Positions 7,637 to 18,684 of a DNA stretch of 23,281 nt are shown here, one piece after another. Position 1 is the first letter of the stretch. Every line of letters begins with the position of its first letter. The notes under the pieces are model-generated. The model was not told the origin of the DNA. It saw nothing but the letters and a program-made list of their open reading frames with translations, and ran no database searches. The stretch comes from Gammaproteobacteria bacterium (GTDB lineage Bacteria > Pseudomonadota > Gammaproteobacteria > HK1): NCBI GenBank assembly GCA_022822245.1, contig JAJECB010000411.1, positions 1-23,281 on the forward strand, read 5' to 3'. A program made the position numbers and the translations under genes.

Positions 7637-9013
7637 ATGGACATGACCGCGACCGCCGACCGGCGCGCCCGGCCCTACAGCGGCTACCACCGCGTGTCGG
7701 TCGCGGGCGAGGACCCGGAGCTGACCCACACCGGCCCGCGCACCCCGTGCGGCGAGTACTTCCGGCGGTTCTGGATCCCGGTCGCGATGACCGAGGAGCT
7801 GGGAGAGCATCCCACCCCCGTCACCGTGCTCGGCGAGGAACTCGTCCTGTTCCGGGACCTTTCCGGGCGTCTCGGCCTTCTGCACAAGCATTGCAGCCAC
7901 CGCCGCGCGTCGCTCGAGTACGGGATCGTCTCCGAGCGCGGGGTCCGGTGCTGCTATCACGGCTGGCTCTTCGACGTGGACGGCACGATCCTCGAGGCGC
8001 CGGGGGAGCCCGCGGAGAGCCCCATTCCGCGGAGGCTCAGCCACGGCGCCTATCCCGTCACCGAGCTGGCCGGCCTCGTCTTCGCCTACCTCGGCCCCCC
8101 CGAGCTGCGGCCCGGGTTCCCCATGCTCGACACCCTCTCGCTGCCCGGCGACGAGCTCGTGCCCTACGCGATCGACTACCCCTGCAACTGGCTGCAGGTG
8201 GCCGAGAACCCGATGGACCCGTTCCACAGCGTGTTCCTGCACACCCGGGTGACCCGCGCGCACTTCAACCCGGCGTGGGGAGCGCTGCCGGTGGTCGAGT
8301 GGCACCCGCACGAGGACGGCACCGGGATCCATCTCACCAACGTCCGCCGCTGGGAGGACTTCATCTGGGTGCGGACCGCCGAGGTCATGCTCCCGGCCAT
8401 CGCGCAGCCGCCGGACATCTACCAGAACCCGGACCGGGAGAAGTTCTTTCCCGGGGTCGGGATCACCAAGTGGACGGTGCCGGTCGACGACACCCGGTGC
8501 CGCATCATCGCCTACCGCCACTTCAGCGACGAGCTCGACCTCGACGGCAAGGGGGACCGCACCCGGGTCGGGCTCAACCAGGTCGATTTCGTCGGGCAGA
8601 CCGGCATCGAGCGCTCGAGGGAGGAGGGCCTTCGCATGCCGGGCGACTACGAGGCGCAAGTTTCGCAGGGCCCGATCACGGTGCACGCCGGCGAGCGGCT
8701 CGCGACCACCGACAAGGGGGTGGCCCTCTACCGGCGGATGCTCCGCCAGGCGATCCGCAACCTCGCCGCGGGAGACGAGCCGCCACAGCTTCGGGCGGGA
8801 CCGGACGGTCGGGTGCCGACCATGGCCGGCGACGTCATTGTGCGCGTGCCCGTGTCGAACGGAGACGACGCCGAGCTCCAGCGGACGGTGGGCCGGGAGG
8901 TCGGGCGCATCGTTTACGAGACCATGGAGCTCGAGCGTGCCGCGCGGCGGGCGGAGATCGAGCGGCGGGTCCGGGCATGGCTCGGCGCGCACGTTCCATC
9001 GGGCGGGCCGTGA
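7637..9013 (+). CDS. Rieske non-heme iron oxygenase, alpha subunit (second copy, different subfamily)
   Basis: This 458-residue protein has Rieske ligands C86-x-H88 and C105-x2-H108 (CCYHGW), then a catalytic domain with the iron motif E190-N-P-M-D194-P-F-H197-x4-H202. It is longer than the oxygenase at 3608-4837 and only shares the motifs, so it is not a recent duplicate. The PFHSVFLH iron site and long C-terminus resemble phthalate-4,5-dioxygenase or Rieske O-demethylase-type enzymes, which act on aromatic or heterocyclic substrates with a separate reductase. No reductase or beta subunit is encoded nearby. It heads a rightward group with a 2-oxoglutarate oxygenase and ABC permeases. The ribosome site is weak; the second Met (7643) could also be the start. 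Confidence 0.88.
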   Translation: MDMTATADRRARPYSGYHRVSVAGEDPELTHTGPRTPCGEYFRRFWIPVAMTEELGEHPTPVTVLGEELVLFRDLSGRLGLLHKHCSHRRASLEYGIVSERGVRCCYHGWLFDVDGTILEAPGEPAESPIPRRLSHGAYPVTELAGLVFAYLGPPELRPGFPMLDTLSLPGDELVPYAIDYPCNWLQVAENPMDPFHSVFLHTRVTRAHFNPAWGALPVVEWHPHEDGTGIHLTNVRRWEDFIWVRTAEVMLPAIAQPPDIYQNPDREKFFPGVGITKWTVPVDDTRCRIIAYRHFSDELDLDGKGDRTRVGLNQVDFVGQTGIERSREEGLRMPGDYEAQVSQGPITVHAGERLATTDKGVALYRRMLRQAIRNLAAGDEPPQLRAGPDGRVPTMAGDVIVRVPVSNGDDAELQRTVGREVGRIVYETMELERAARRAEIERRVRAWLGAHVPSGGP

Positions 9014-9124
9014 GCGCGCGCCGGGCGCCCCGGCGATGCGACAATCGGGAGGCCACCCATGCAAGGACCTGAACGAGATGCACCCCGGTGACCTCTCCCC
9101 CGTTCGCCCCGCGGTTCCGAAGTG

Positions 9125-10156
9125 ATGGCGCGCGCGAGGGCCGAGACGCTTGCCGCCGACGAGGTGCCGGTGATCGATGTCGGACCCTTGCGCGACGGCA
9201 GCGATCCGACGGGGGTTGGTGCCGAGCTCGCCCGGGCCGCCTCCGAGGTGGGGTTCCTCTACGTCCGGAACCACGGGGTGGACGCCGCGACCATCGAAGG
9301 GGCGCGCCGCGCGGGGTTCGAACTCTTCCGGCTGCCGGCCGCGGCCAAGCACGAGGCGCGCACGAACCGGTTCCACCATGGCTGGCTCGGGCCCGACTCG
9401 ACGAAGATGTACGACGACGCGAAGCCCGACCTCAAGGAGAGCTTCAACTGGGGTCTCGAGGTCGAGGCGGAGGTCGAAGGCAAGGGCGAGACGGAGGCCG
9501 GGACGGATGCCGGGACGAAGGCCGGAGCCGGGAACGGGGCCGGCGCGGCGCGGCCGAACCCGCTCGCCGGACCCAACGTCTGGCCGGCCGCCGCCCCGGG
9601 ACTCGCACCCGGCGTGCGGCCCTGGTTCGACAGGGCGAGCGCCTGCGCGGAAGACCTCCTCCGTGGCTTTGCGGTGGGGGCCGGCCTCGACCCCGAGCAC
9701 TTCATCCGGCATCGCGACCGGCCGCTCAGCCGGGGGTCGCTCCAGTACTACCCGCCGCACCCCCGTGACGCCGGCGAAGACCGGTTCGGCGTCGCCCCCC
9801 ACACCGACTTCGGGATGCTCACCGTGCTCGCCCAGGACGACGTCGGCGGACTCGAGATCCAGCGGCTCACCGGCGAGTGGGTCGCGATGCCGCCATTGCC
9901 GGGGACGCTCGTCGTCAACGTCGGTGACCTGCTCGAGCGCTGGTCGAACCGCCGCTATCGGTCCACGGTGCATCGCGTGATCAACCGGAGCGGCCGGGAG
10001 CGGCTCTCGCTGGTGCTCGCCTACGACCCGAACTTCGAGACCCTGGTCGATCCGGGCGCGTTCTGCGCCGGGGGCGAGACCCCGCACGACGAGCCCATCC
10101 TGTGCGGCGACTACCTGCTCTGGCGGTTCGAGAAGGCCTTCGCCTACCGCCGCTGA
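9125..10156 (+). CDS. 2-oxoglutarate/Fe(II)-dependent oxygenase, isopenicillin-N-synthase-like
   Basis: This 343-residue protein is a member of the IPNS-like non-heme iron oxygenases. The N-terminal DIOX_N part has VPVIDVGPLRDG and GFLYVRNHGV; the C-terminal jelly roll carries the iron triad H226-x-D228 (APHTDFGMLTV) and H283 (STVHRV), plus the R293-x-S295 motif that binds the 2-oxoglutarate carboxylate. It probably hydroxylates, demethylates or desaturates a small molecule. Residues 112-145 form a low-complexity Glu/Gly/Ala/Thr-rich insertion between two conserved segments (KESFNWG and PNVWP). A GTG sits directly before the ATG at 9125 and could be used instead. It is followed 32 bases later by an ABC permease gene, suggesting that import and oxidation are co-expressed. 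Confidence 0.88.
   Translation: MARARAETLAADEVPVIDVGPLRDGSDPTGVGAELARAASEVGFLYVRNHGVDAATIEGARRAGFELFRLPAAAKHEARTNRFHHGWLGPDSTKMYDDAKPDLKESFNWGLEVEAEVEGKGETEAGTDAGTKAGAGNGAGAARPNPLAGPNVWPAAAPGLAPGVRPWFDRASACAEDLLRGFAVGAGLDPEHFIRHRDRPLSRGSLQYYPPHPRDAGEDRFGVAPHTDFGMLTVLAQDDVGGLEIQRLTGEWVAMPPLPGTLVVNVGDLLERWSNRRYRSTVHRVINRSGRERLSLVLAYDPNFETLVDPGAFCAGGETPHDEPILCGDYLLWRFEKAFAYRR
9458..9559 (+). repeat. Low-complexity in-frame insertion in the 2-oxoglutarate oxygenase gene
   Basis: The stretch is built from GAGGTCGAGGCG-like and GCCGGGACGGATGCC-like short units and encodes a Glu-, Gly-, Ala- and Thr-rich linker. It looks like slippage-driven expansion at a surface loop of the enzyme. Confidence 0.6.
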
Positions 10157-10188
10157 GCGGCGGCGGTTCGCGTCGAAGGGATCGCGCG

Positions 10189-11067
10189 TTGTCTCCCGAG
10201 CCCGTCGCCAGCGACACGCGATCGGCGCCAGCACCGGCGCCAGCACCGGCACCGGCGCGGGCACCGCGCGCGACGCGCGGACGCACGAAGTGGTGGCGGA
10301 GCCGCACGTTCGACGTCGTTCAGTTCGTCGTGCTCGGCGGGGGGCTCGTCTGGCTCACCGTCCGCGGTGCCGAGTCCATGGGCTACAACTGGCAGTGGTA
10401 CCGGATCCCCCGGTACTTCTGGCGGATCATCGACGGCGAGCTCATCTGGGGGCCGTTGATGACCGGCCTCGCGGTCACCGTCGAGCTCTCCCTCTACGCG
10501 ATGATCCTCACCCTCGCGATCGGGCTCGTGACGGCCCTCCTGCGAATGTCGGATTCGATCTCGGGCCAGATCCTCGCGAAGGTCTATCTCGAAGCGATCC
10601 GCAACACGCCGATGCTCGTGCAGCTCCTCGTGTTCTATTTCGTGATCGCTCCGGTCATCGGAATCGAGCGGTTCTGGACGGGCGTGCTCTGCCTCGGCGT
10701 GTTCGAGGGAGCGTTCGCCTCCGAGATCATCCGCGCCGGAATCAACTCGGTCCCCCGCGGTCAATGGGAGGCGTCGGCGAGCATCGGCCTCTCGCGCCTC
10801 AATACCTACCGGCTCGTCGTGCTGCCCCAGGCGGTCCCCCTGATGCTCCCGCCGATGACGGGGGTGCTCATCAACCTCATCAAGCACTCGGCCATCGTGA
10901 GCGTCATCGCGGTGTTCGAGCTGACGACGGAAGGGCGCAACATCATCGCCGAGACCTTCATGAGCTTCGAGGTCTGGCTCACCGTCGCGGGCGTGTATCT
11001 CGTCATCACGTGCAGCCTCTCGGTGCTGGTCGGCTACCTCGAGCGCCGCGTGGCGAGAAAGGACTGA
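10189..11067 (+). CDS. Polar amino-acid ABC transporter permease (first)
   Basis: This 292-residue inner-membrane protein belongs to the HisM/GlnP permease family. The TTG start at 10189 is chosen because GAAGGGA lies about ten bases upstream; the open frame before it runs inside the preceding gene. A short cytoplasmic N-terminus with an Ala-Pro repeat (residues 13-26) precedes membrane spans near residues 45-60, 90-115, 140-165, 215-240 and 265-285. The EAA loop that docks the ATPase is clear: EASASIGLSRLNTYRLVVLP. The motif RNTPMLVQLLVFYF is typical of this family. It is followed two bases later by a second permease, so the pair likely forms a heterodimer. No ATPase is encoded in the window. 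Confidence 0.88.
   Translation: MSPEPVASDTRSAPAPAPAPAPARAPRATRGRTKWWRSRTFDVVQFVVLGGGLVWLTVRGAESMGYNWQWYRIPRYFWRIIDGELIWGPLMTGLAVTVELSLYAMILTLAIGLVTALLRMSDSISGQILAKVYLEAIRNTPMLVQLLVFYFVIAPVIGIERFWTGVLCLGVFEGAFASEIIRAGINSVPRGQWEASASIGLSRLNTYRLVVLPQAVPLMLPPMTGVLINLIKHSAIVSVIAVFELTTEGRNIIAETFMSFEVWLTVAGVYLVITCSLSVLVGYLERRVARKD
10225..10266 (+). repeat. Short GC-rich tandem repeat encoding an Ala-Pro tract
   Basis: Units of the type GCGCCAGCACCG repeat here and encode (Ala-Pro)n followed by Ala-Arg-Ala-Pro in the permease N-terminus. It is likely prone to length change by slippage, with little effect on the membrane core. Confidence 0.6.
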
Positions 11068-11069
11068 CG

Positions 11070-11957
11070 GTGAACCCCTACGCGAAGAAGCGCCGCCTGA
11101 AGCCGCTCGATGTCGTCATCCTGGCCGCGGTGGCGGGGGTCGTCGCGTTCTTCGCCTGGAAGGTCAACTCGGTCCTCGCGTACGAATGGGACTGGGGGGT
11201 CATTCCCCGCTACCTGCTCCGCCGCGACGAAGAGACCGGGTCGCTCGCCCCCAACCTGCTCGTGCTCGGGCTCGTCACGACCGTGCGCCTCGCCATCTGG
11301 AGCCTCGTCCTCGCCGCGATCGTCGGCGGCATCATGGGGGTGATGCGCACGAGCCGGCGCCTCTTCCCCCGGCTCTTGAGCCGCGCCTACGTCGAGCTGG
11401 TCCGCAACACCCCGCCGCTCGTCTTCATTTTCGTCTTCTACTTCTTCATCTCGAGCCAGATCATGCCGCTTCTCGGAATCGACGCCCTGGTCACGGACGC
11501 TTCGCCGGTCACCGCCACCGTCATCGCGTGGGTGGCGTCCCCGCCGAAGCTGCTCGAGAACTTCATCGCCGGGGTGATCTGCCTCTCGCTCTTCTCCGGC
11601 GCCTACGTAACCGAGATCGTCCGGGCGGGGATCCAGTCGATCCCCCGCGCCCAGATCGAGGCGGGGGCGAGCATCGGGCTCTCGCGGTGGAAGATCATGC
11701 GCCTCGTGGTGCTCCCCCAGGCACTGCAACGGGTGCTCCCGCCGCTTGCCGGCCAGTTCATCATCCTCATCAAGGACTCCTCCCTGGTATCCCTTATCTC
11801 GATCCAGGAACTGACCTTCTACGCGCTCGACATCGCGGTATCGACGACGCGGGTCTTCGAGGTGTGGATCTTCGTCGGTGCGCTCTACTTCGTGATCTGC
11901 TACGCCTGCGCCCTCGCCTTCGATTGGCTGGAGCGCCGGGGCCGGGCCTACCACTGA
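11070..11957 (+). CDS. Polar amino-acid ABC transporter permease (second)
   Basis: This 295-residue HisM/GlnP-type permease starts at GTG 11070, two bases after the previous stop, with AAGGA upstream. Membrane spans are visible near residues 14-32, 60-85, 110-135, 165-190 and 265-285. RNTPPLVFIFVFYFF and the EAA loop EAGASIGLSRWKIMRLVVLP match the family. The segment between the first and second spans (RRDEETGSLAPN) makes it slightly longer than minimal permeases, as in general L-amino-acid (AapQM-type) systems. It should pair with the permease encoded just upstream and with the binding protein encoded on the opposite strand next door. A strong hairpin ends the transcript at 11987-12016. Confidence 0.9.
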   Translation: MNPYAKKRRLKPLDVVILAAVAGVVAFFAWKVNSVLAYEWDWGVIPRYLLRRDEETGSLAPNLLVLGLVTTVRLAIWSLVLAAIVGGIMGVMRTSRRLFPRLLSRAYVELVRNTPPLVFIFVFYFFISSQIMPLLGIDALVTDASPVTATVIAWVASPPKLLENFIAGVICLSLFSGAYVTEIVRAGIQSIPRAQIEAGASIGLSRWKIMRLVVLPQALQRVLPPLAGQFIILIKDSSLVSLISIQELTFYALDIAVSTTRVFEVWIFVGALYFVICYACALAFDWLERRGRAYH

Positions 11958-11986
11958 ACGAAAGGAGCGCGGCCCGGAAACGAACC

Positions 11987-12016
11987 GGGGGGAAGCCCGT
12001 CGCCGGGCTTCCCCCC
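11987..12016. terminator. Strong hairpin between convergent transporter genes
   Basis: GGGGGGAAGCCCG (11987-11999) pairs perfectly with CGGGCTTCCCCCC (12004-12016) around a 4-base loop. It sits between the second permease and the convergent binding-protein gene and can serve both strands, although the flanking T-tracts are missing. Confidence 0.7.
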
Positions 12017-12051
12017 GATGGATGGTCCAGGCGGATGAGATGGACGGCGCG

Positions 12052-12897
12052 CTACTCGCCGGTGTCGACCATGTCCGCCCAGTTGCGGGTCGTGAACCAG
12101 TAGTCGTGGCGCTCCTTCAGCCACCCGCTCGCGTGCTTCTCCTGGATCCAGTTGTTGAAGAAGTTGAGGACGTCGGGGTCGCCCTTGCGCACCGCGAAGG
12201 CTTCGCGCGTCGGGGACATCAGCTTCGGCGAGACGACCCGCAGCGCGTCGCCGCGCTTCTCGACCTCGAAGGCCGCCTTGGGCGGCGTCGAGGAAACGCC
12301 GTCGACGTTGCCGTTGGCCGCTTCCTGGTAGGCGAGGGTGTCGTCGTCGAAGTAGATGAGCTTCGCCTTCGGGAAGTTCCGCTTCATCGCCTCCGCACCG
12401 GTCGTGGCGCGACGGGTGGCGATGGTGATGCCCGCCTGGTTGAAGTCCTCGAGGGTCTTCAGGCCCTTCTCGTCGGCCCGGGCGGTGCTCGCCATGAGGA
12501 TGTAGCCGGTGTTGGCGTAGGGGTGGGTGAAGTTGACGGTGAGGTTGCGCTGCGCGGTGATCGACATGCCGCTGATGATCGCGTCGAACTTGCCGGCGAG
12601 GAGGGCGGGAATGATGCCGTCCCACGCCGTCGGCACGAAGTCGATGCCAACGCCCATGTCTTCGGCCAGCTTCTTCGCGACGTCGATCTCGAAGCCGATG
12701 AGCTCACCGTTCTTGTCGCGCATCGCCCAGGGGACGAAGGTCGAGAGGCCGACCCGAAGCTCGCCGCGCTTCTTGATCGTCTCGAGCACGCTATCCGCGG
12801 ACAGGGCCTGCCGAGTGTCCGCCGTGGCCGCGCCCGAGAGCGCGAGCAGAAGGCCCGTGGCGACGAGGGCGCCCATGCCGAGTCTCATTGATTTCAT
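12052..12897 (-). CDS. Periplasmic substrate-binding protein of an amino-acid ABC transporter
   Basis: This 281-residue protein is of SBP_bac_3 type. Residues 1-27 are a signal peptide (KSMR, a hydrophobic core, then SGAATA-D), so it is exported to the periplasm. The mature part opens with SVLETIKKRGELRVGLSTFVPWAM, then FEIDVAKKLAEDMG and WDGIIPALLAGKFDAIISGM, the usual start of lobe 1. The C-terminus has FFNNWI and WLKERHDYWF. The start at 12897 has AAGGA about ten bases upstream; an upstream in-frame extension has no signal sequence. It faces the two permease genes and almost certainly belongs with them, but it has its own promoter. The ligand is probably a polar or modified amino acid. Confidence 0.88.
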   Translation of the reverse strand: MKSMRLGMGALVATGLLLALSGAATADTRQALSADSVLETIKKRGELRVGLSTFVPWAMRDKNGELIGFEIDVAKKLAEDMGVGIDFVPTAWDGIIPALLAGKFDAIISGMSITAQRNLTVNFTHPYANTGYILMASTARADEKGLKTLEDFNQAGITIATRRATTGAEAMKRNFPKAKLIYFDDDTLAYQEAANGNVDGVSSTPPKAAFEVEKRGDALRVVSPKLMSPTREAFAVRKGDPDVLNFFNNWIQEKHASGWLKERHDYWFTTRNWADMVDTGE

Positions 12898-13122
12898 CGG
12901 CGAGTGTCCTTCATGTAGTGGGGGGGCGGCAAGCCTCGCACCGGCAAGGATCTCCGTCAAGCCGGGGCCGGCGCCGAGGCCGGTCGGATGGCCCCCCGGA
13001 TTCGAGACCTCCGGCGGTTCGCGTCCGCCGCGGGGCGGTGTCCCGGTGCCGCCCTCCACACGTCACCCGTCACCCGCCGCGCGCCGGTTGCGCCCGTCGG
13101 CCGGAACGGGCATGGTTCGGGA

Positions 13123-14010
13123 ATGGCATCGAATCCGTTGTCCCGGGCCGACCTCGCCCGGCTCACCGAGCGCTCCGACGCCAAGGGGCTCGTTCGTCTC
13201 GTCCTCCACGTCGGGGTGATCGCGGTCGCGGGGGCCGTCTACGCGGCCGCGCTCGAGACCGCATGGATGCTGCCCGCCGCCTGGGTCTACGGGACCTGCC
13301 TCGCCTTTGCGTTCGCGCCGCTGCACGAGACGGTCCACTACACCGCCTTTCGCAGCCGCGGGCTCAACCGCGCGGTGTCGGTCGCGTGCGGGTGGCTTCT
13401 CGTGCTGCCGCCCCGTTTCTTCCGCGCCTTCCACCTCGAGCATCACCGCTGCACGCAGGATCCGGAGCGCGACCCCGAGCTCACCGGCGCGCCGCTTCGC
13501 ACGTGGCGCCAGTACCTCTGGCGGGTCAGCGGGGCCCAGTACTGGGCGCGACAGCTCCGCGGGATCGCGAGGTTCGCGGCGGGACGGGTAACGGAGCCCT
13601 GGATCCCCGGTGCCGAGCGCGAACGGGTCGTTCGCGAGGCGCGGGTGTTCCTCGCGAGCTATGCGGCGGTCGGCGTCCTCTCGCTCGTGACCGGCACCGC
13701 CGGCCTGCTGCTCTGGTTCTGGATCGTTCCGGTCCTCCTCGGGCAGCCGATGCTGAGGCTCTACCTCCTTGCCGAGCACACCGGGTGTCCGATGACCCCG
13801 GACATGCTCGAGAACTCGCGCACCGTGCACACGAACGCCCTGGTCCGGTTCCTCGCGTGGAACATGCCCTACCACGCCGAGCACCACGCGTACGCCTCGA
13901 TCCCGTTCCATGCGCTGCCGCGCGCCCACGCCGCGCTCGCCCCGTTCATTCGGAACCAGCCGCGCGGATACGTGCGGGTGCATCGGGAGCTCGCCCGGGG
14001 TCTGGGCTAG
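13123..14010 (+). CDS. Membrane fatty-acid-desaturase-family di-iron enzyme (second copy)
   Basis: This 295-residue membrane protein carries the three histidine boxes H68-ETV-H72, H104-LE-HH (104-108) and H251-AE-HH (251-255) of the FA_desaturase superfamily. Hydrophobic segments lie near residues 24-65, 85-98 and 180-208. It is clearly paralogous to the product of 5438-6409 but has diverged, and it lacks an adjacent ferredoxin gene; it may share the one encoded at 5073-5441. It is divergent from the binding-protein gene, with a 225-base gap (12898-13122) in which I see no other gene. The ATG at 13123 gives a start aligned with the paralogue (NPLSRADLARLTERSDA versus GRLSREELRGLMRRSDA). Confidence 0.82.
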   Translation: MASNPLSRADLARLTERSDAKGLVRLVLHVGVIAVAGAVYAAALETAWMLPAAWVYGTCLAFAFAPLHETVHYTAFRSRGLNRAVSVACGWLLVLPPRFFRAFHLEHHRCTQDPERDPELTGAPLRTWRQYLWRVSGAQYWARQLRGIARFAAGRVTEPWIPGAERERVVREARVFLASYAAVGVLSLVTGTAGLLLWFWIVPVLLGQPMLRLYLLAEHTGCPMTPDMLENSRTVHTNALVRFLAWNMPYHAEHHAYASIPFHALPRAHAALAPFIRNQPRGYVRVHRELARGLG

Positions 14011-14169
14011 CGCGCCGCGCCGGCGACGCGACAACTCGGCACGGCCGCGCGCTCGTCACCCGGAAGAGCTGGCCGGATGCGGCAAGGAGGGCGTTCGGGT
14101 TCGAGGGGTTTCGCCGTTGCCGCCGCCTGACGTATGGTTCCGGGACCGGGCAGGGTCGGGAGACGGATC

Positions 14170-15030
14170 GTGAAGCTTGACTACGCAAAGGGCGTCGCCG
14201 AGTACTTTCGAACCAATCAATGGAACTACTTCACCGATCTCCTGCAAACGCTTCGCATCAACAGCCACATCCATATCTTCGTCAATACCTCCATTCACCC
14301 GGTCTCGCTGGAAAGGATCGTGAAGGAGTACCTCGCGATGAGAGGCTGGGCGGTCAACCGGGTGAACGAGATGCTGAGATGGTCGGCCCCGAAGACGGGC
14401 GTCATTCACGGGGTCCATCCGCACGACATGCCGCACTTCGACATGATCTGGCGGTTCCGGAACGACGTCGTGCTCGAGCCCATGGAAGAGCGGCTGGCCG
14501 AAGGGGGGCGGAACGTTCTCTATTGGGACGAGGACTACATGAAGACCTTCTACCGCGGGTATCAATGGAGATCCGTGGGCCGCGAGGAAGAGCAGCAGAT
14601 CCTCGCCTATTTCGAAACCCCGCACTGGAACGACGCCTTCGAGCTCATCGTGAATCCGGAGACTCCCCATATCCACGTCAACGTGGAGACCTGCATTCAC
14701 CCGAGCGTGCTCGAAAGGTTCTTTCTCGACGCAATCGCGAAGAGAGGCTGGAAGGTTCTGAGGACGGTTCCGAACGTGGTCGTATCCCACGGCGTGTACT
14801 ACGGCAAGATCATGTTCCTGGTGGCGGAGCCGGAGCTGAGCTTCGACTTCTCCTGGTTCTACAACCCGGACGTGATACTCGCACCGTGCACCCGGCAACA
14901 CCTCGTGTATGGCAATTCCGAGTACCTGATCGTGAGGAAGAAGGACATCGACGACCTCATCGCCGAGGATGACTACGTGACCCTGGGCGAGGACGAGATC
15001 CGGCGGTGCCTTCGATCGATCGAGATCTGA
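14170..15030 (+). CDS. Unrecognised protein with two tandem copies of one domain
   Basis: This 286-residue protein starts at GTG 14170, preceded by GGGAG at a good distance; an upstream in-frame ATG (14134) is less likely. I do not recognise the family. It consists of two homologous halves, about residues 9-130 and 144-265. HIHIFVNTSIHPVSLER (33-49) aligns with HIHVNVETCIHPSVLER (167-183), and RGW 58-60 aligns with RGW 192-194, all at a constant offset of 134 residues. Each half holds an H-I-H strand and an I-H-P turn, so a metal site or paired beta-sheet fold is possible. There is no signal peptide or membrane segment. Codon use is less GC-biased than that of its neighbours, which hints at transfer. 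It stands alone between convergent and co-directional neighbours. Confidence 0.75.
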   Translation: MKLDYAKGVAEYFRTNQWNYFTDLLQTLRINSHIHIFVNTSIHPVSLERIVKEYLAMRGWAVNRVNEMLRWSAPKTGVIHGVHPHDMPHFDMIWRFRNDVVLEPMEERLAEGGRNVLYWDEDYMKTFYRGYQWRSVGREEEQQILAYFETPHWNDAFELIVNPETPHIHVNVETCIHPSVLERFFLDAIAKRGWKVLRTVPNVVVSHGVYYGKIMFLVAEPELSFDFSWFYNPDVILAPCTRQHLVYGNSEYLIVRKKDIDDLIAEDDYVTLGEDEIRRCLRSIEI

Positions 15031-15032
15031 AA

Positions 15033-15060
15033 CGACGGCCGGAAGACGAGAGGGCCGTCG
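15033..15060. terminator. Hairpin just after the duplicated-domain gene
   Basis: CGACGGCC (15033-15040) and GGCCGTCG (15053-15060) pair perfectly around a 12-base loop, two bases after the stop codon. It probably ends the transcript of the gene at 14170-15030. Confidence 0.45.
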
Positions 15061-15104
15061 GCGACGTCACCGGCGGTTCTGCCCGAGCATCTCGAATTCA
15101 CCTG

Positions 15105-15133
15105 GCGGCCGGACTCCCCCGGAGCCCGGCCGC
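15105..15133. terminator. GC-rich hairpin in the convergent gap
   Basis: GCGGCCGG (15105-15112) pairs with CCGGCCGC (15126-15133). The inner CTCC and GGAG also pair, leaving a 3-base loop. It lies between the convergent genes ending at 15030 and 15219 and may serve the dehydrogenase gene. Confidence 0.4.
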
Positions 15134-15218
15134 GCGCGGACCTTGCGGACATCGACCCGTCTCGCGGCCTCGCGCCCGGACCCTCGCGGCAGGACGGGCC
15201 CGGCCCCGGCCGGGTGCG

Positions 15219-16121
15219 TCACACCCCGTCCTTCCGGACTTTCACTCCCACCGTATCCTCGAGGACCGTGATGACGCCTCCCCCGTCCAGCGTTCCCCTT
15301 CCCATCGCGTGCGCGGCTCTCAGGATCTCCTTCGCCACGTTCGTGAGGACCAGCGGCACGCCAAGCTCCCTTGCCGTCTGGGTGACGATGTCGAGATCCT
15401 TGAGGTGGATGTCCACGTCGCCCTCGGAGGAGAAGTCCCCTTCGATGATCTTCGGGACCTTCCCCATTAACATCGCGCTGTTCCCCGAGCCGGCCCGAGT
15501 CACTTCGTAGAGGGTCTGGCCGTCGATTCCCGCCTTCGCCCCGAGGACCAGGGCCTCCGATATCGACACGAGCTCGACCGAGCATAGGAGCTGGTTCATC
15601 ATCTTGAGGGTCTGACCGTTCCCGACCGGGCCTACCCAGAAGATGTCCCGGCCCATCGCCGCGAGGACCTCCTCGGTCTCGTCCTTCACGTCGGGCTCGG
15701 CTCCGGCCATGATCTCCAGCGTTCCCGCCTCCGCCCCCTTGACTCCGGTGCTCACCGGAGCGTCCAGGGTCCTGATCCCGCGCTCGGCAAGACGAGCCGC
15801 CAGCTCCCGGATCCCACGCGGCCCAATCGTGTTCATGCAGGCGACGATGGCGCCTTCGGCCAGGCCCTCGACGGCTCCGTCGGCACCGAACAACACCTCT
15901 TCGGTCTGATCGAGATTCACCACCATGATCACGACCATGTCCACGTCCATCGCGAGGTCCTTCGGCGACGAGGCGGCGCGCACCCCGAGTGCCGTGAACT
16001 CCGACATCGCCTCCGGCCGCAGGTCGTACACGCCGCGAAGAAACCCGGCCCGGGCCAGTCGCATCGCCATCTTCGAGCCGATCTTTCCGAGCCCGACGAA
16101 ACCGACCTGCTTCTTCGTCAT
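15219..16121 (-). CDS. NAD(P)-dependent beta-hydroxyacid dehydrogenase (HIBADH family)
   Basis: This 300-residue protein belongs to the 3-hydroxyisobutyrate / tartronate-semialdehyde / 6-phosphogluconate-like dehydrogenases. The Rossmann motif is GLGKIG (10-15). The substrate-binding segment is DAPVSTGVKGAEAGTL (120-135). The catalytic lysine is K173 in GQTLKMMNQLL, with N176 also conserved. The ATG at 16121 follows GGAGGTGAT at eight bases; a GTG nine bases earlier overlaps that ribosome site and is rejected. It should oxidise a small beta-hydroxy acid or reduce a semialdehyde or imine; the exact substrate cannot be read. It is divergent from the selenoprotein gene across a 126-base region with a candidate GntR-type operator, so the two may be co-regulated. 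Confidence 0.9.
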   Translation of the reverse strand: MTKKQVGFVGLGKIGSKMAMRLARAGFLRGVYDLRPEAMSEFTALGVRAASSPKDLAMDVDMVVIMVVNLDQTEEVLFGADGAVEGLAEGAIVACMNTIGPRGIRELAARLAERGIRTLDAPVSTGVKGAEAGTLEIMAGAEPDVKDETEEVLAAMGRDIFWVGPVGNGQTLKMMNQLLCSVELVSISEALVLGAKAGIDGQTLYEVTRAGSGNSAMLMGKVPKIIEGDFSSEGDVDIHLKDLDIVTQTARELGVPLVLTNVAKEILRAAHAMGRGTLDGGGVITVLEDTVGVKVRKDGV

Positions 16122-16163
16122 GGCGATCACCTCCGCGTTTCAATGCATTCACAAAATAGTCGA

Positions 16164-16174
16164 TTGTCTGACGA
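16164..16174. promoter_or_regulatory. Candidate GntR/FCD-type operator in the divergent promoter region
   Basis: TTGTCTGACGA fits the FCD-subfamily GntR consensus TNGTNNNACNA at every fixed position. It lies in a relatively AT-rich stretch between the dehydrogenase and selenoprotein genes, where a repressor could control both. The consensus has only six fixed bases, so a chance match is possible, and no GntR gene is in the window. Confidence 0.35.
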
Positions 16175-16190
16175 CTCGATACCCCGGGCC

Positions 16191-16220
16191 TTGACACCGG
16201 CCGACCCGTGTGCAGGTTAT
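16191..16220 (+). promoter_or_regulatory. Candidate promoter for the selenoprotein gene
   Basis: A perfect TTGACA (16191-16196) is followed after 18 bases by GGTTAT (16215-16220), a weak -10. The predicted start lies about 20 bases before the ATG at 16248. The candidate GntR operator is just upstream. Confidence 0.4.
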
Positions 16221-16247
16221 GCGTACATCAACCCGATGGAGACTCTC

Positions 16248-17984
16248 ATGTCGACGACCGCCACCACCGCTCGCACCACCATGACTCCACCAACCGAACC
16301 GGGGCGCGCGTTCTGGCCCGGCGGCGACAGCGCGGTAGCGCCGATCGAGCCTGCCCCGCGTCCCGCGAGCCTCCGCGTGAGGCGCGTCGGCTTCCTCTGG
16401 AACCATGTGTTCCGGGGTGAGGAGATCTTTCCCCTCCTCGCGCGGCGGCTCGAGGCCGAGTTCGAGGGTGTCGAATTCGTCGGCTTCGACGCGTTCGGCT
16501 CCACTTTCGGCGGAGACGAGCACGCGGTCGTCGAGGCCCTGCCTTCGCGCCTCCGCGACCTCGGGGTCGACGCGGTCATCTCCGGCATCGGCGCCTGAGG
16601 CGCGTGCACGCCCGCCGTGATGCGGGCGAGCGCGGCGGTCGAGCGGTGCGGGGTGCCATCGGTGTCGCTCGTGTGCGACGGCTTCATCGGCCAAGGCTCG
16701 ATCGTGGCCCGGGGGCTTGGCATCGGCGCACTGCCCATCGCGCGGATCCCGGGTCACGTCGACGGGCAGAGCGACGAGGAGCTGGCCGCGGGGATCGGCG
16801 ACGTGACCTTCGCCGATGTCGTCCGGCACCTCACGACGCCGGTCTCCGCGGCCGCCGCGGGCGAGCAGCCGAAGTCCGGGGACATCGTCGCCGAGGGCGG
16901 CTTCGACGAGGTGAACGCCGTCTTCGAGGCGCGGGGCTGGAGCGACGGCCTCCCCATTGTGCCGCCGACCCCCGAGCGGGTGGCCCGGTTCCTCGCTTGC
17001 ACGCCCGATCCACCGGACCGCCGCATCGGAGTGCTCGCGCCTTCCGGCTCGGCCGCGACCGTACACAACGTGGCGGTGAACGGGGTCATGGCGGGTTGCC
17101 TTCCCGAGTACATGCCGGTGCTCGTCGCCATCGCCGAGGTGCTCGCCGACCCGGGCTACGGCGTCGAGCACAGCGGGGACACGACGGGAGGCGACGCTCT
17201 CGTCGTGCTGAGCGGCCGGGCGGTGTCCGCGCTCGACTTCAACTGCGAGGAGGCGGCCCTGCGGGACGGCTACCGGGCCAACACGAGCGTCGGGCGCTTT
17301 CTCAGGCTCTACTTGCGCAACGTCGCCGGGTTCCTCCCGGGCGGCGCGGACAAGAGCACGTTCGGGCACACCTGGCGGGTGGTGCTCGCCGAGCACGAGG
17401 GCGCGGCGTGCTCGCTCGCCTGGCCGACCCTCGCGGTGGACCGTGGCTTCGAGCCCGGCGAGAGCGTCGTCACCGTCGCCCGGTTCACGAGCGGCGGAAC
17501 CATCGGCTCCATCTTCGGCGACGACCCCGAGCGGATTGCCGCCTACCTCGCGGACGGGCTGGTCCGGCACACGAGCTGGGAGCTCATCTTCACCCTCGGC
17601 TTCGCGCCGGGGACCTACTGCCCGCTGCTCGTCCTGAGCCCGATGGTGGCCGGGACCCTGCGGCGTGCGGGGTGGACGAAGGAGCGGCTCCGGGAGCGCC
17701 TCTTCGCGCTCGCGCGCATGCCGGCGAGCAAGCTCGAGTCGTACGTCGGCGAATGGACGAACCTCCTGCCGGGCCGGCCGGACCTGCACGCGCTCGTGCG
17801 CGAGGGGCGGGCGGGTCCCGTCTTTGCCGAGGGCTCGGACCCGGAGCGGCTGGTTCCGGTGGTGGCGAGCGCCGACGACTTCCTCATCGTGGTGAGCGGC
17901 GATCCCATGCGCTCGAACGCATACGCCTTTGCGAGCAACGGGATGCACGGATACCCGACGAGCCGCGTCGTGCGATTCGTCTAG
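16248..17984 (+). CDS. UGSC-type selenoprotein fused to a second conserved domain (in-frame TGA = Sec)
   Basis: I read this as one 578-residue protein with selenocysteine at residue 117 (TGA 16596-16598). The frame is open before and after the TGA without a shift. Across it the product reads VDAVISGIGA-U-GACTPAV, a Rossmann-like strand leading into a U-G-A-C redox motif, one residue off the U-G-S-C of the UGSC selenoprotein family. The family segments continue after it (ERCGVPSVSLVCDGFI). A SECIS-like hairpin follows at 16603-16634. The ATG at 16248 has GGAG six bases upstream; 16236 is an alternative. A second domain begins near residue 218 with RGWSDGLPIVPPTPERV, then NGVMAGCLPEYMPV, a conserved partner of UGSC proteins. 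Residues 1-35 look disordered. The exact reaction is unknown; a thiol/selenol redox role is inferred. If Sec insertion failed, only a 116-residue stub would be made. Confidence 0.82.
16603..16634 (+). promoter_or_regulatory. Candidate bacterial SECIS element
   Basis: Immediately after the TGA, CGCCCGC (16609-16615) pairs with GCGGGCG (16622-16628) around the loop CGTGAT (16616-16621). Below an A-A mismatch the stem continues as CGTGC (16603-16607) with GCGCG (16630-16634), including one G-U pair. The apical loop starts 17 bases after the UGA and has G then U at loop positions 2-3. This meets the known bacterial SECIS rules: a hairpin inside the coding region, loop 16-37 bases from the UGA, and a G among the first two loop bases. 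It would recruit SelB with Sec-tRNA. Confidence 0.72.
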
Positions 17985-17998
17985 AGCGTGTTCACGCT
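17985..17998. terminator. Short hairpin after the selenoprotein gene
   Basis: AGCGTG-TT-CACGCT starts directly after the TAG stop and pairs fully (realistically five pairs with a 4-base loop). It lies between convergent genes ending at 17984 and 18049 and is a plausible but weak terminator. Confidence 0.35.
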
Positions 17999-18048
17999 AC
18001 CGACTTCGGCGCTCCCCGCTCAGTCGGCCATCGTGCAGGCTCTCGCCA

Positions 18049-18684
18049 TCAGCGAGGACGCTCCAACGTCAGCAGGTACGCGCCGGCCAGCACGAACACG
18101 CCGCCCGTCGCACGGTTGAACAGGCGCATGCCCGCGCCATTCGCCAGGTATGCGGAGAGCCGGCTCGCAAACGTGGCAAGGAGGACCTCGACGGCGACCT
18201 CGATCCCGACGAAGGTGCCCGCCATCGCGAGGAACTGGGGCACGAGACCGTGCCCGGGGTCGTAGAACTGCGGCAGGAAGGCGGCGAAGAAGATCACCGC
18301 CTTCGGGTTCAGGATCACGATCCACAGACCCTGCCCGAACAGGTAGACCTCGCTCGGCGGGGCGGCGGGCCGGCTCGCCTTGCGCACGTCGGCGAAGGCG
18401 CCGCGGGTGCGAATGAGCGATACGCCAAGGTAGATGAGATAGCAGGCCCCGAGCCACTTGATGACGTAGAAGACCGTCTCGGAGGCCGCAAGCACCAGGC
18501 CGAGCCCGGAGAGCGAGGCGCCGATGAGGAGGGCGAGTCCGGCCGCACAGCCAAGGGTCGAGAAGAGCGTCCTCCCGACCCCGAATCGCACCCCGTTGGT
18601 GACGGCAAGCAGACTGTTCGGGCCCGGCGTCAGGCAGAGCAGGAGCACCGCCGAGGCGTACAGGCTCCAGATGTCAAGGCTCAT
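18049..18684 (-). CDS. LysE/RhtB-family amino-acid exporter
   Basis: This 211-residue inner-membrane protein has the LysE hallmark near the N-terminus, LLLCLTPGPNSLLAVTNGVRFG, and six predicted spans (about residues 5-25, 40-62, 68-88, 118-138, 150-172, 188-206). GLWIVILNPKAVIFFAAFLPQF in the middle is also typical. Members export amino acids or homoserine-lactone-like metabolites by proton antiport. The ATG at 18684 has GGAG seven bases upstream. It is transcribed alone and converges on the selenoprotein gene. The substrate cannot be predicted; export of an amino acid formed by the pathway genes is a guess. Confidence 0.9.
   Translation of the reverse strand: MSLDIWSLYASAVLLLCLTPGPNSLLAVTNGVRFGVGRTLFSTLGCAAGLALLIGASLSGLGLVLAASETVFYVIKWLGACYLIYLGVSLIRTRGAFADVRKASRPAAPPSEVYLFGQGLWIVILNPKAVIFFAAFLPQFYDPGHGLVPQFLAMAGTFVGIEVAVEVLLATFASRLSAYLANGAGMRLFNRATGGVFVLAGAYLLTLERPR

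What the first reader, a model, noticed from the sequence alone, without database searches (positions are those of the whole stretch)
16248..17984. Hidden selenoprotein: a single in-frame TGA in a U-G-A-C motif joins two ORFs into one gene
Seen: the frames ending at 16598 and resuming at 16599 are the same frame, and the residues on both sides fit one continuous domain (GIGA-U-GACTPAV). The downstream half has no ribosome site of its own. Known: UGSC-type selenoproteins carry Sec in a U-G-S-C motif after a strand like this. Inference: the TGA encodes Sec at residue 117. Automatic annotation would give a truncated small protein and a second hypothetical protein.
Basis: partly seen in the sequence, partly recalled or inferred. 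Interest (0 to 1): 0.88.

Follow-up and report, generated by a model that had tools for sequence, protein, structure and literature searches.

The report
Selenocysteine gene split by a stop
A stop codon inside this gene almost certainly encodes the rare amino acid selenocysteine, so the two apparent gene pieces are one fused redox protein of a known but functionally uncharacterised selenoprotein family.

Summary
16248-17984 (+) is one frame with a single TGA at 16596-16598, and the joined product matches Pfam UGSC (PF24696) at 92.6 bits, the halves at 25.0 and 35.2. Of 120 homologues listed, 46 reach this position: 45 have Cys, one Tyr; 74 do not reach it. The TGA is kept in all 22 rows (21 distinct places). 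A hairpin at 16609-16628 has bacterial SECIS form, with modest statistics. The nearest genome held has selA, selB, selD and tRNA-Sec, and selB was found in 17 of 17 whole genomes with a TGA form. Inference: Sec at residue 117. It is a new member of a known kind: the UGSC family, and its fusion to an unnamed domain, were described in 2008 (PMC2398784). Three points were not met in the passages read: a predicted flavodoxin/Rossmann-like rather than thioredoxin-like fold, a Sec site aligning with PrdB-like proteins, and a C-terminal domain without a Pfam or NCBIfam model that accompanies UGSC in nearly every place examined.

The parts
16238..16241 (+). GGAG, probable ribosome-binding site for ATG 16248
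   Evidence: sequence; inference
16248..17984 (+). UGSC selenoprotein gene, fused form, 578 residues with Sec117; start codon inferred (16281 is the alternative)
16314..16835 (+). UGSC domain (residues 23-196), predicted flavodoxin/Rossmann-like alpha/beta fold
   Evidence: Pfam PF24696 92.6 bits; model mean pLDDT 89.6; structural matches span 40-202
16596..16598 (+). TGA read as selenocysteine, residue 117, first residue of the U-x-x-C pair
   Evidence: inference
16605..16607 (+). TGC, Cys120, the Cys of U-G-A-C
   Evidence: Cys in 46 of 46 homologues that reach it
16609..16628 (+). SECIS-like hairpin: 7-bp stem (16609-16615 with 16622-16628), loop CGUGAU 16616-16621, 17 nt between UGA and loop
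16860..17981 (+). C-terminal partner domain (residues 205-578; inferred to be the 'Unknown_1' of PMC2398784)
17097..17099 (+). TGC, Cys284 of MAGC, conserved in 120 of 120 listed homologues

Best explanation
One gene encodes a 578-residue fused UGSC selenoprotein. Shown by comparison: the TGA at 16596-16598 is a conserved sense codon that alternates with Cys codons in relatives. Inferred: at this UGA, SelB with Sec-tRNA(UCA) is held by the hairpin that begins 10 nt downstream and selenocysteine is inserted at residue 117. Inferred from the model: Sec117 follows the third strand of a flavodoxin/Rossmann-like domain, three residues before Cys120 at the start of a helix, forming a U-x-x-C redox site. 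The C-terminal domain, which elsewhere is a separate neighbouring gene, carries a conserved Cys284 and most likely holds the substrate, so that the whole is a thiol-dependent reductase of a small organic acid. The substrate is unknown and the reductase step is a guess at about 0.4; the confidence below is for the Sec reading.
For: One TGA in an otherwise open frame. Joined Pfam UGSC score far above either half. Cys at 117 in 45 of 46 listed homologues that reach it. TGA at the position in 22 of 22 rows (21 distinct places), and in L058, L061, Acidovorax sp. T1, Paracoccus ferrooxidans and P. versutus; TGC or TGT in L059, Natrinema, Halalkalicoccus, Haloterrigena, two Variovorax and Neorhizobium. 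Constraint on both sides of the TGA. Hairpin: 27 of 1000 synonymous recodings fold as well, and a 28-nt piece has z -3.9. selA 512 bits, selB 434, selD 301 and tRNA-Sec 72.5 bits (anticodon TCA) in the nearest genome, all over cut-off. selB over cut-off in 17 of 17 whole genomes found with a TGA form, and no selB match at E 1e-40 in the one whole genome found with a Cys form, G195. UGSC aligns with PrdB-like proteins with the two U/C-x-x-C pairs in register (hhalign E 3.4e-6, probability 87.7).
Against: The window's own assembly is not held. The hairpin signal is modest: 50-nt and 35-nt pieces give z -1.0 and -0.65; of seven pairs five never vary, one shows a two-sided change and one is broken in 5 of 12 rows; 11 of 27 TGA loci do not pass 5% against synonymous recodings and L043 and L045 show no excess at all, while one Cys locus of 7 does pass. 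Rfam found nothing in the window at gathering scores. One homologue has Tyr at the position, and the Sporomusa relative aligns with ATG. The Acidovorax plasmid with a TGA form carries no selB itself. Nothing tests selenium or activity directly.
Confidence: 0.94

Rival explanations
1. A recent nonsense mutation or sequencing error turned a Cys codon into TGA, leaving a broken gene.
For: TGC/TGT to TGA is a single base change, and Cys is what 45 of 46 listed full-length homologues carry.
Against: The same TGA stands at the same codon in 22 of 22 rows, down to 24% protein identity, and in three named plasmids. Both sides remain under protein-level constraint. In whole genomes the TGA form goes with selB in 17 of 17.
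Confidence: 0.02
2. Two separate genes: a short UGSC N-terminal protein that ends at 16598 and a 454-residue protein that starts at ATG 16620 or GTG 16617.
For: 74 of the 120 listed homologues do not reach the position and 56 of them are 454-459 aa; in other loci UGSC and the C-terminal domain are separate genes.
Against: In the separate-gene loci the break lies between the two domains, not within UGSC at the Sec codon. The two halves complete one Pfam domain. No ribosome site precedes 16617 or 16620.
Confidence: 0.02
3. TGA is read through as another amino acid (suppressor tRNA or changed code), not Sec.
For: The frame is open on both sides, as any readthrough would give.
Against: Only one TGA lies inside this frame and it falls at the Cys of a C-x-x-C pair. 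tRNA-Sec with anticodon TCA and SelA, SelB and SelD are present in the nearest genome.
Confidence: 0.02

Closest known systems
UGSC-containing selenoprotein family (Pfam PF24696; PMC2398784, passages read)
   Same: Pfam match well over the gathering score; Sec in a U-x-x-C motif; Sec and Cys exchanged between relatives
   Different: U-G-A-C instead of U-G-S-C; below the NCBIfam NF041046 cut-off (53 of 125 bits); the Trx-like fold thought likely in that paper is not what the model shows
UGSC/Unknown_1 fusion of the Global Ocean Sampling selenoproteome (PMC2398784, passages read; its Figure S1A not seen)
   Same: UGSC domain fused to an unnamed conserved domain; the paper says such fused domains as a rule have a conserved Cys
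   Different: Identity of Unknown_1 with this C-terminal domain is inferred; here the domain also appears as a neighbouring separate gene, in bacteria and haloarchaea
D-proline reductase selenoprotein PrdB (NCBIfam TIGR04483)
   Same: U/C-x-x-C pairs align in register with PrdB-like proteins, most of them of the same bacterial family; profile comparison E 3.4e-6 over 93 columns
   Different: 11.9 bits against a cut-off of 300. The PrdB-like proteins compared are themselves below that cut-off (0 of 143 genomes over it)
Class I fumarase and Toblerone-fold cyclic amide hydrolases

Membership tests
Bacterial selenoprotein | In-frame UGA with coding constraint on both sides | tested here: met
Bacterial selenoprotein | Cys or Sec codon at the UGA position in homologues | tested here: met
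   45 of 46 listed homologues that reach it have Cys, 1 Tyr; TGA in 22 of 22 rows
Bacterial selenoprotein | Hairpin of SECIS form just downstream of UGA, small apical loop with a G | tested here: met
   Form met: hairpin 16609-16628, loop CGUGAU; statistical support modest. The loop rule is from passages of PMC1088965
Bacterial selenoprotein | selA, selB, selD and tRNA-Sec in the genome | tested here: inconclusive
   Own assembly not held; all four present over cut-off in the nearest genome, which shares 46% of the window's sampled 31-mers
Bacterial selenoprotein | Selenium in the protein | not testable with these tools
   needs mass spectrometry or 75Se
UGSC family (Pfam PF24696) | Score over the gathering threshold | tested here: met
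   92.6 bits against 25
UGSC family (NCBIfam NF041046 equivalog) | Score over the curated cut-off | tested here: not met
   53 bits against 125, so not filed under this narrower model, although NCBI gives that name to several fused relatives
UGSC family (motif) | U or C, then G, S or A, C | tested here: met
   UGAC here; of 46 homologues 42 have Ala and 4 Ser at the third position
UGSC/Unknown_1 fusion | C-terminal domain is the published Unknown_1 | not tested
   Figure S1A of PMC2398784 not seen; inferred from the text
D-proline reductase PrdB | Score over the NCBIfam TIGR04483 cut-off | tested here: not met
   11.9 bits against 300; a distant relative at most
Thioredoxin fold (thought likely for UGSC in PMC2398784) | Thioredoxin-like core (definition recalled) | tested here: inconclusive
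   Model alternates five strands and five helices over 46-196 and its best matches are of Rossmann/flavodoxin type (fold names recalled); a prediction only

The most novel reading that the evidence does not exclude
UGSC and its partner domain form an undescribed selenium-dependent (or Cys-dependent) reductase that shares ancestry with the Sec subunit of D-proline reductase and occurs in several phyla of bacteria and in haloarchaea, with the Sec/Cys site in one half and the substrate pocket in the other. Organic-acid transport, CoA-transferase, aconitase X and thioredoxin reductase genes beside some relatives hint at carboxylic acid substrates.
Probability: 0.3. Interest if true: 0.65.

Novelty: new member of a known kind. 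Interest (0 to 1): 0.4.

Why it matters
It confirms a hidden selenoprotein and suggests that such genes are often cut short: 74 of the 120 listed homologues do not reach the Sec codon (their DNA was not seen), and a Paracoccus record splits one into separate hypothetical proteins about 3 kb from selB. [quoted passage not shown] The frequent pairing with an unnamed domain, and a Sec site that aligns with that of PrdB-like proteins, turn that open question into a testable enzyme hypothesis.

Tried and rejected
Nonsense mutation, two-gene and other-suppressor readings were considered and rejected (see rivals). A thioredoxin fold for UGSC was expected from PMC2398784; no row of the 50 shown is named a thioredoxin, which is no proof of absence. 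Sequence search of solved structures found nothing for the alignment or the protein. Foldseek with the whole model gave no match under E 0.001. The C-terminal domain alone gave only weak fumarase and Toblerone-fold matches, not used for function. No tRNA and no Rfam family at gathering score was found in the window. A phylum-wide draw found matches at E 1e-30 or better in 4 of 398 genomes, G001 among them, so few further DNA relatives could be gathered. Neighbours as a clue to function: of five window neighbours tested against 12 loci (11 distinct, several short), LysE, desaturase and Rieske genes were found only in the nearest relative, and the 3-hydroxyisobutyrate-dehydrogenase-like and GST genes in none. 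Literature searches: 'UGSC' with 'selenoprotein' 8 papers, 'UGSC family' 0, 'UGSC' with 'PrdB' 3, 'UGSC-like domain' 0, SECIS terms 7.

Full report
What is in the sequence. The plus-strand frame 16248-17984 reads 578 residues with one internal stop, TGA at 16596-16598, residue 117, in GIGA-U-GACTPAV. The mechanical ORF list gives two pieces in this frame, 16143-16598 and 16617-17984. The joined product matches Pfam UGSC (PF24696) at 92.6 bits over residues 23-196; the first half alone gives 25.0 and the second 35.2 (cut-off 25). NCBI's equivalog model NF041046 gives 53 bits against a cut-off of 125. NCBI nevertheless names several fused relatives 'UGSC family (seleno)protein'.

Homologues. The search scored 7993 candidates, found 3788 with E up to 0.001 and listed 120. 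In an alignment of those 120 with the query, 46 reach residue 117: 45 have Cys and one Tyr. Cys120 is present in 46 of 46 and Cys284 in 120 of 120. The other 74 do not reach it; 56 of them are 454-459 aa long. Of the six whose first residues were printed, four start at the equivalent of ATG 16620, one later, and one (P0108, 861 aa) one residue earlier. This is what gene finders would give after a Sec codon, but the DNA of these 74 was not seen.

DNA of relatives. In all 22 rows (21 distinct places, since L016 and L046 are one contig) the codon at 117 is TGA; identities run from 95% to 24%. In further loci it is TGA (L058, L061, Acidovorax sp. T1, Paracoccus ferrooxidans, P. versutus) or TGC/TGT (L059, Natrinema, Halalkalicoccus, Haloterrigena, Variovorax sp. 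SRS16, V. boronicumulans, Neorhizobium galegae). Sporomusa aligns with ATG; L060 and Vibrio europaeus did not align over the site; a second, weak hit in L070 aligned GCT there and is taken as spurious. Against L046 dN/dS is 0.22 before the TGA (97 codons), 0.02 in the rest of UGSC and 0.21 in the C-terminal part. Six more distant pairs gave 0.16-0.79, at synonymous divergence (pS 0.35-0.68) that makes them less reliable.

The hairpin. Seven pairs, 16609-16615 with 16622-16628, enclose the loop CGUGAU, 17 nt after the UGA. A 28-nt piece has z -3.89 with 0 of 200 shuffles as stable; the 50-nt and 35-nt pieces give z -1.00 and -0.65. Against synonymous recodings, drawn with the window gene's codon use, the window is matched by 27 of 1000. 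Of 27 loci with TGA (the window included), 16 have fewer than 50 of 1000 and 25 have z under -1; of 7 with Cys codons, 1 and 2. The rows are related, so these are not independent tests. Over 12 close loci five pairs never vary, one is GC in 8 and AU in 4, and one is broken in 5. More distant loci form a different stem at nearly the same place; L043 and L045 show no excess. The form agrees with the description of bacterial SECIS elements in passages of PMC1088965.

Machinery. The window's assembly is not held. The nearest genome, G001, shares 46% of sampled 31-mers and holds the gene at 95% identity. It has selA (512 bits, cut-off 267.9), selB (434.4, 242.25), selD (300.8, 125) and tRNA-Sec (72.5 bits, gathering 47; anticodon TCA). 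Among 17 genomes of its family the same nine have selA and selB over cut-off. The eight of 55 relatives with any match to this protein are all among those nine; relatives outside the family were not tested for selB. In whole genomes where a TGA form was found, selB is over cut-off in 17 of 17: eight of the family, G191, G363 and the seven behind L047-L053. G195, the one whole genome found with a Cys form, has no selB match at E 1e-40. The Paracoccus ferrooxidans plasmid carries selB about 3 kb from the partner gene. The Acidovorax plasmid carries none; its chromosome, and P. versutus, were not searched.

The partner domain. Residues 205-578 match no Pfam or NCBIfam model at E up to 1, nor do four separate partner proteins at E up to 0.01. 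In 52 distinct places with this domain, 20 share a frame with a UGSC domain without TAA or TAG between them, 27 have a same-strand UGSC within 1.6 kb, and 5 have none seen. Of those five, one lies at a contig end, one is a short fragment, two lie near a divergent fused gene, and the Vibrio protein scores just under the Pfam cut-off for UGSC (24.9 of 25). The 20 may include neighbours that merely share a frame. The places were found with this protein as query, so the count shows association among its relatives only. Predicted alone (mean pLDDT 90.0), the domain gives only weak fold matches. Of 24 plasmid records with a match (20 listed), 11 were opened, one of them without annotation there. Some have tripartite tricarboxylate transport proteins, CoA transferases, aconitase X, PEP mutase-like enzymes or a thioredoxin reductase nearby: a hint at organic acid metabolism, without a control for how common such genes are.

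Verdict. Ordinary in kind and well supported: a fused UGSC selenoprotein, hidden by its Sec codon. What may be new is the combination of predicted fold, relation to PrdB-like proteins and frequent partner, which I did not see in the passages read or the listings searched.

Noticed in passing
window 14065-16276: The nearest relative L046 is colinear with the window on both sides (8207-14064 and 16277-18328, about 95%) but lacks this 2.2-kb stretch, which carries an ORF at 14134-15030 and a 3-hydroxyisobutyrate-dehydrogenase-like gene (15219-16130, minus). The selenoprotein gene's upstream region and start therefore differ between the two.
   Followed up: partly
G001, G002, G003 and other genomes of the same family (L016-L045, L073-L084): Selenoprotein-rich bacteria: at least four, four and five UGSC genes with TGA in G001, G002 and G003 among the loci fetched, plus PrdB-like stretches with one TGA.
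   Followed up: partly
L066 5360-5929: Paracoccus ferrooxidans pFER4: a UGSC selenoprotein is annotated as two hypothetical proteins split at the TGA, with selB about 3 kb downstream of the partner gene.
   Followed up: partly
L063 5911-6558: The Cys form in the haloarchaeon Natrinema zhouii keeps a SECIS-like hairpin (z -2.5, 22 of 1000 recodings as stable), possibly a relic of a Sec ancestor acquired from bacteria.
   Followed up: no
alignment column 116 (residue before Sec): 38 of the 46 listed homologues that reach it have a second Cys just before position 117, while the window has Ala there; several TGA relatives also have Cys there.
   Followed up: no
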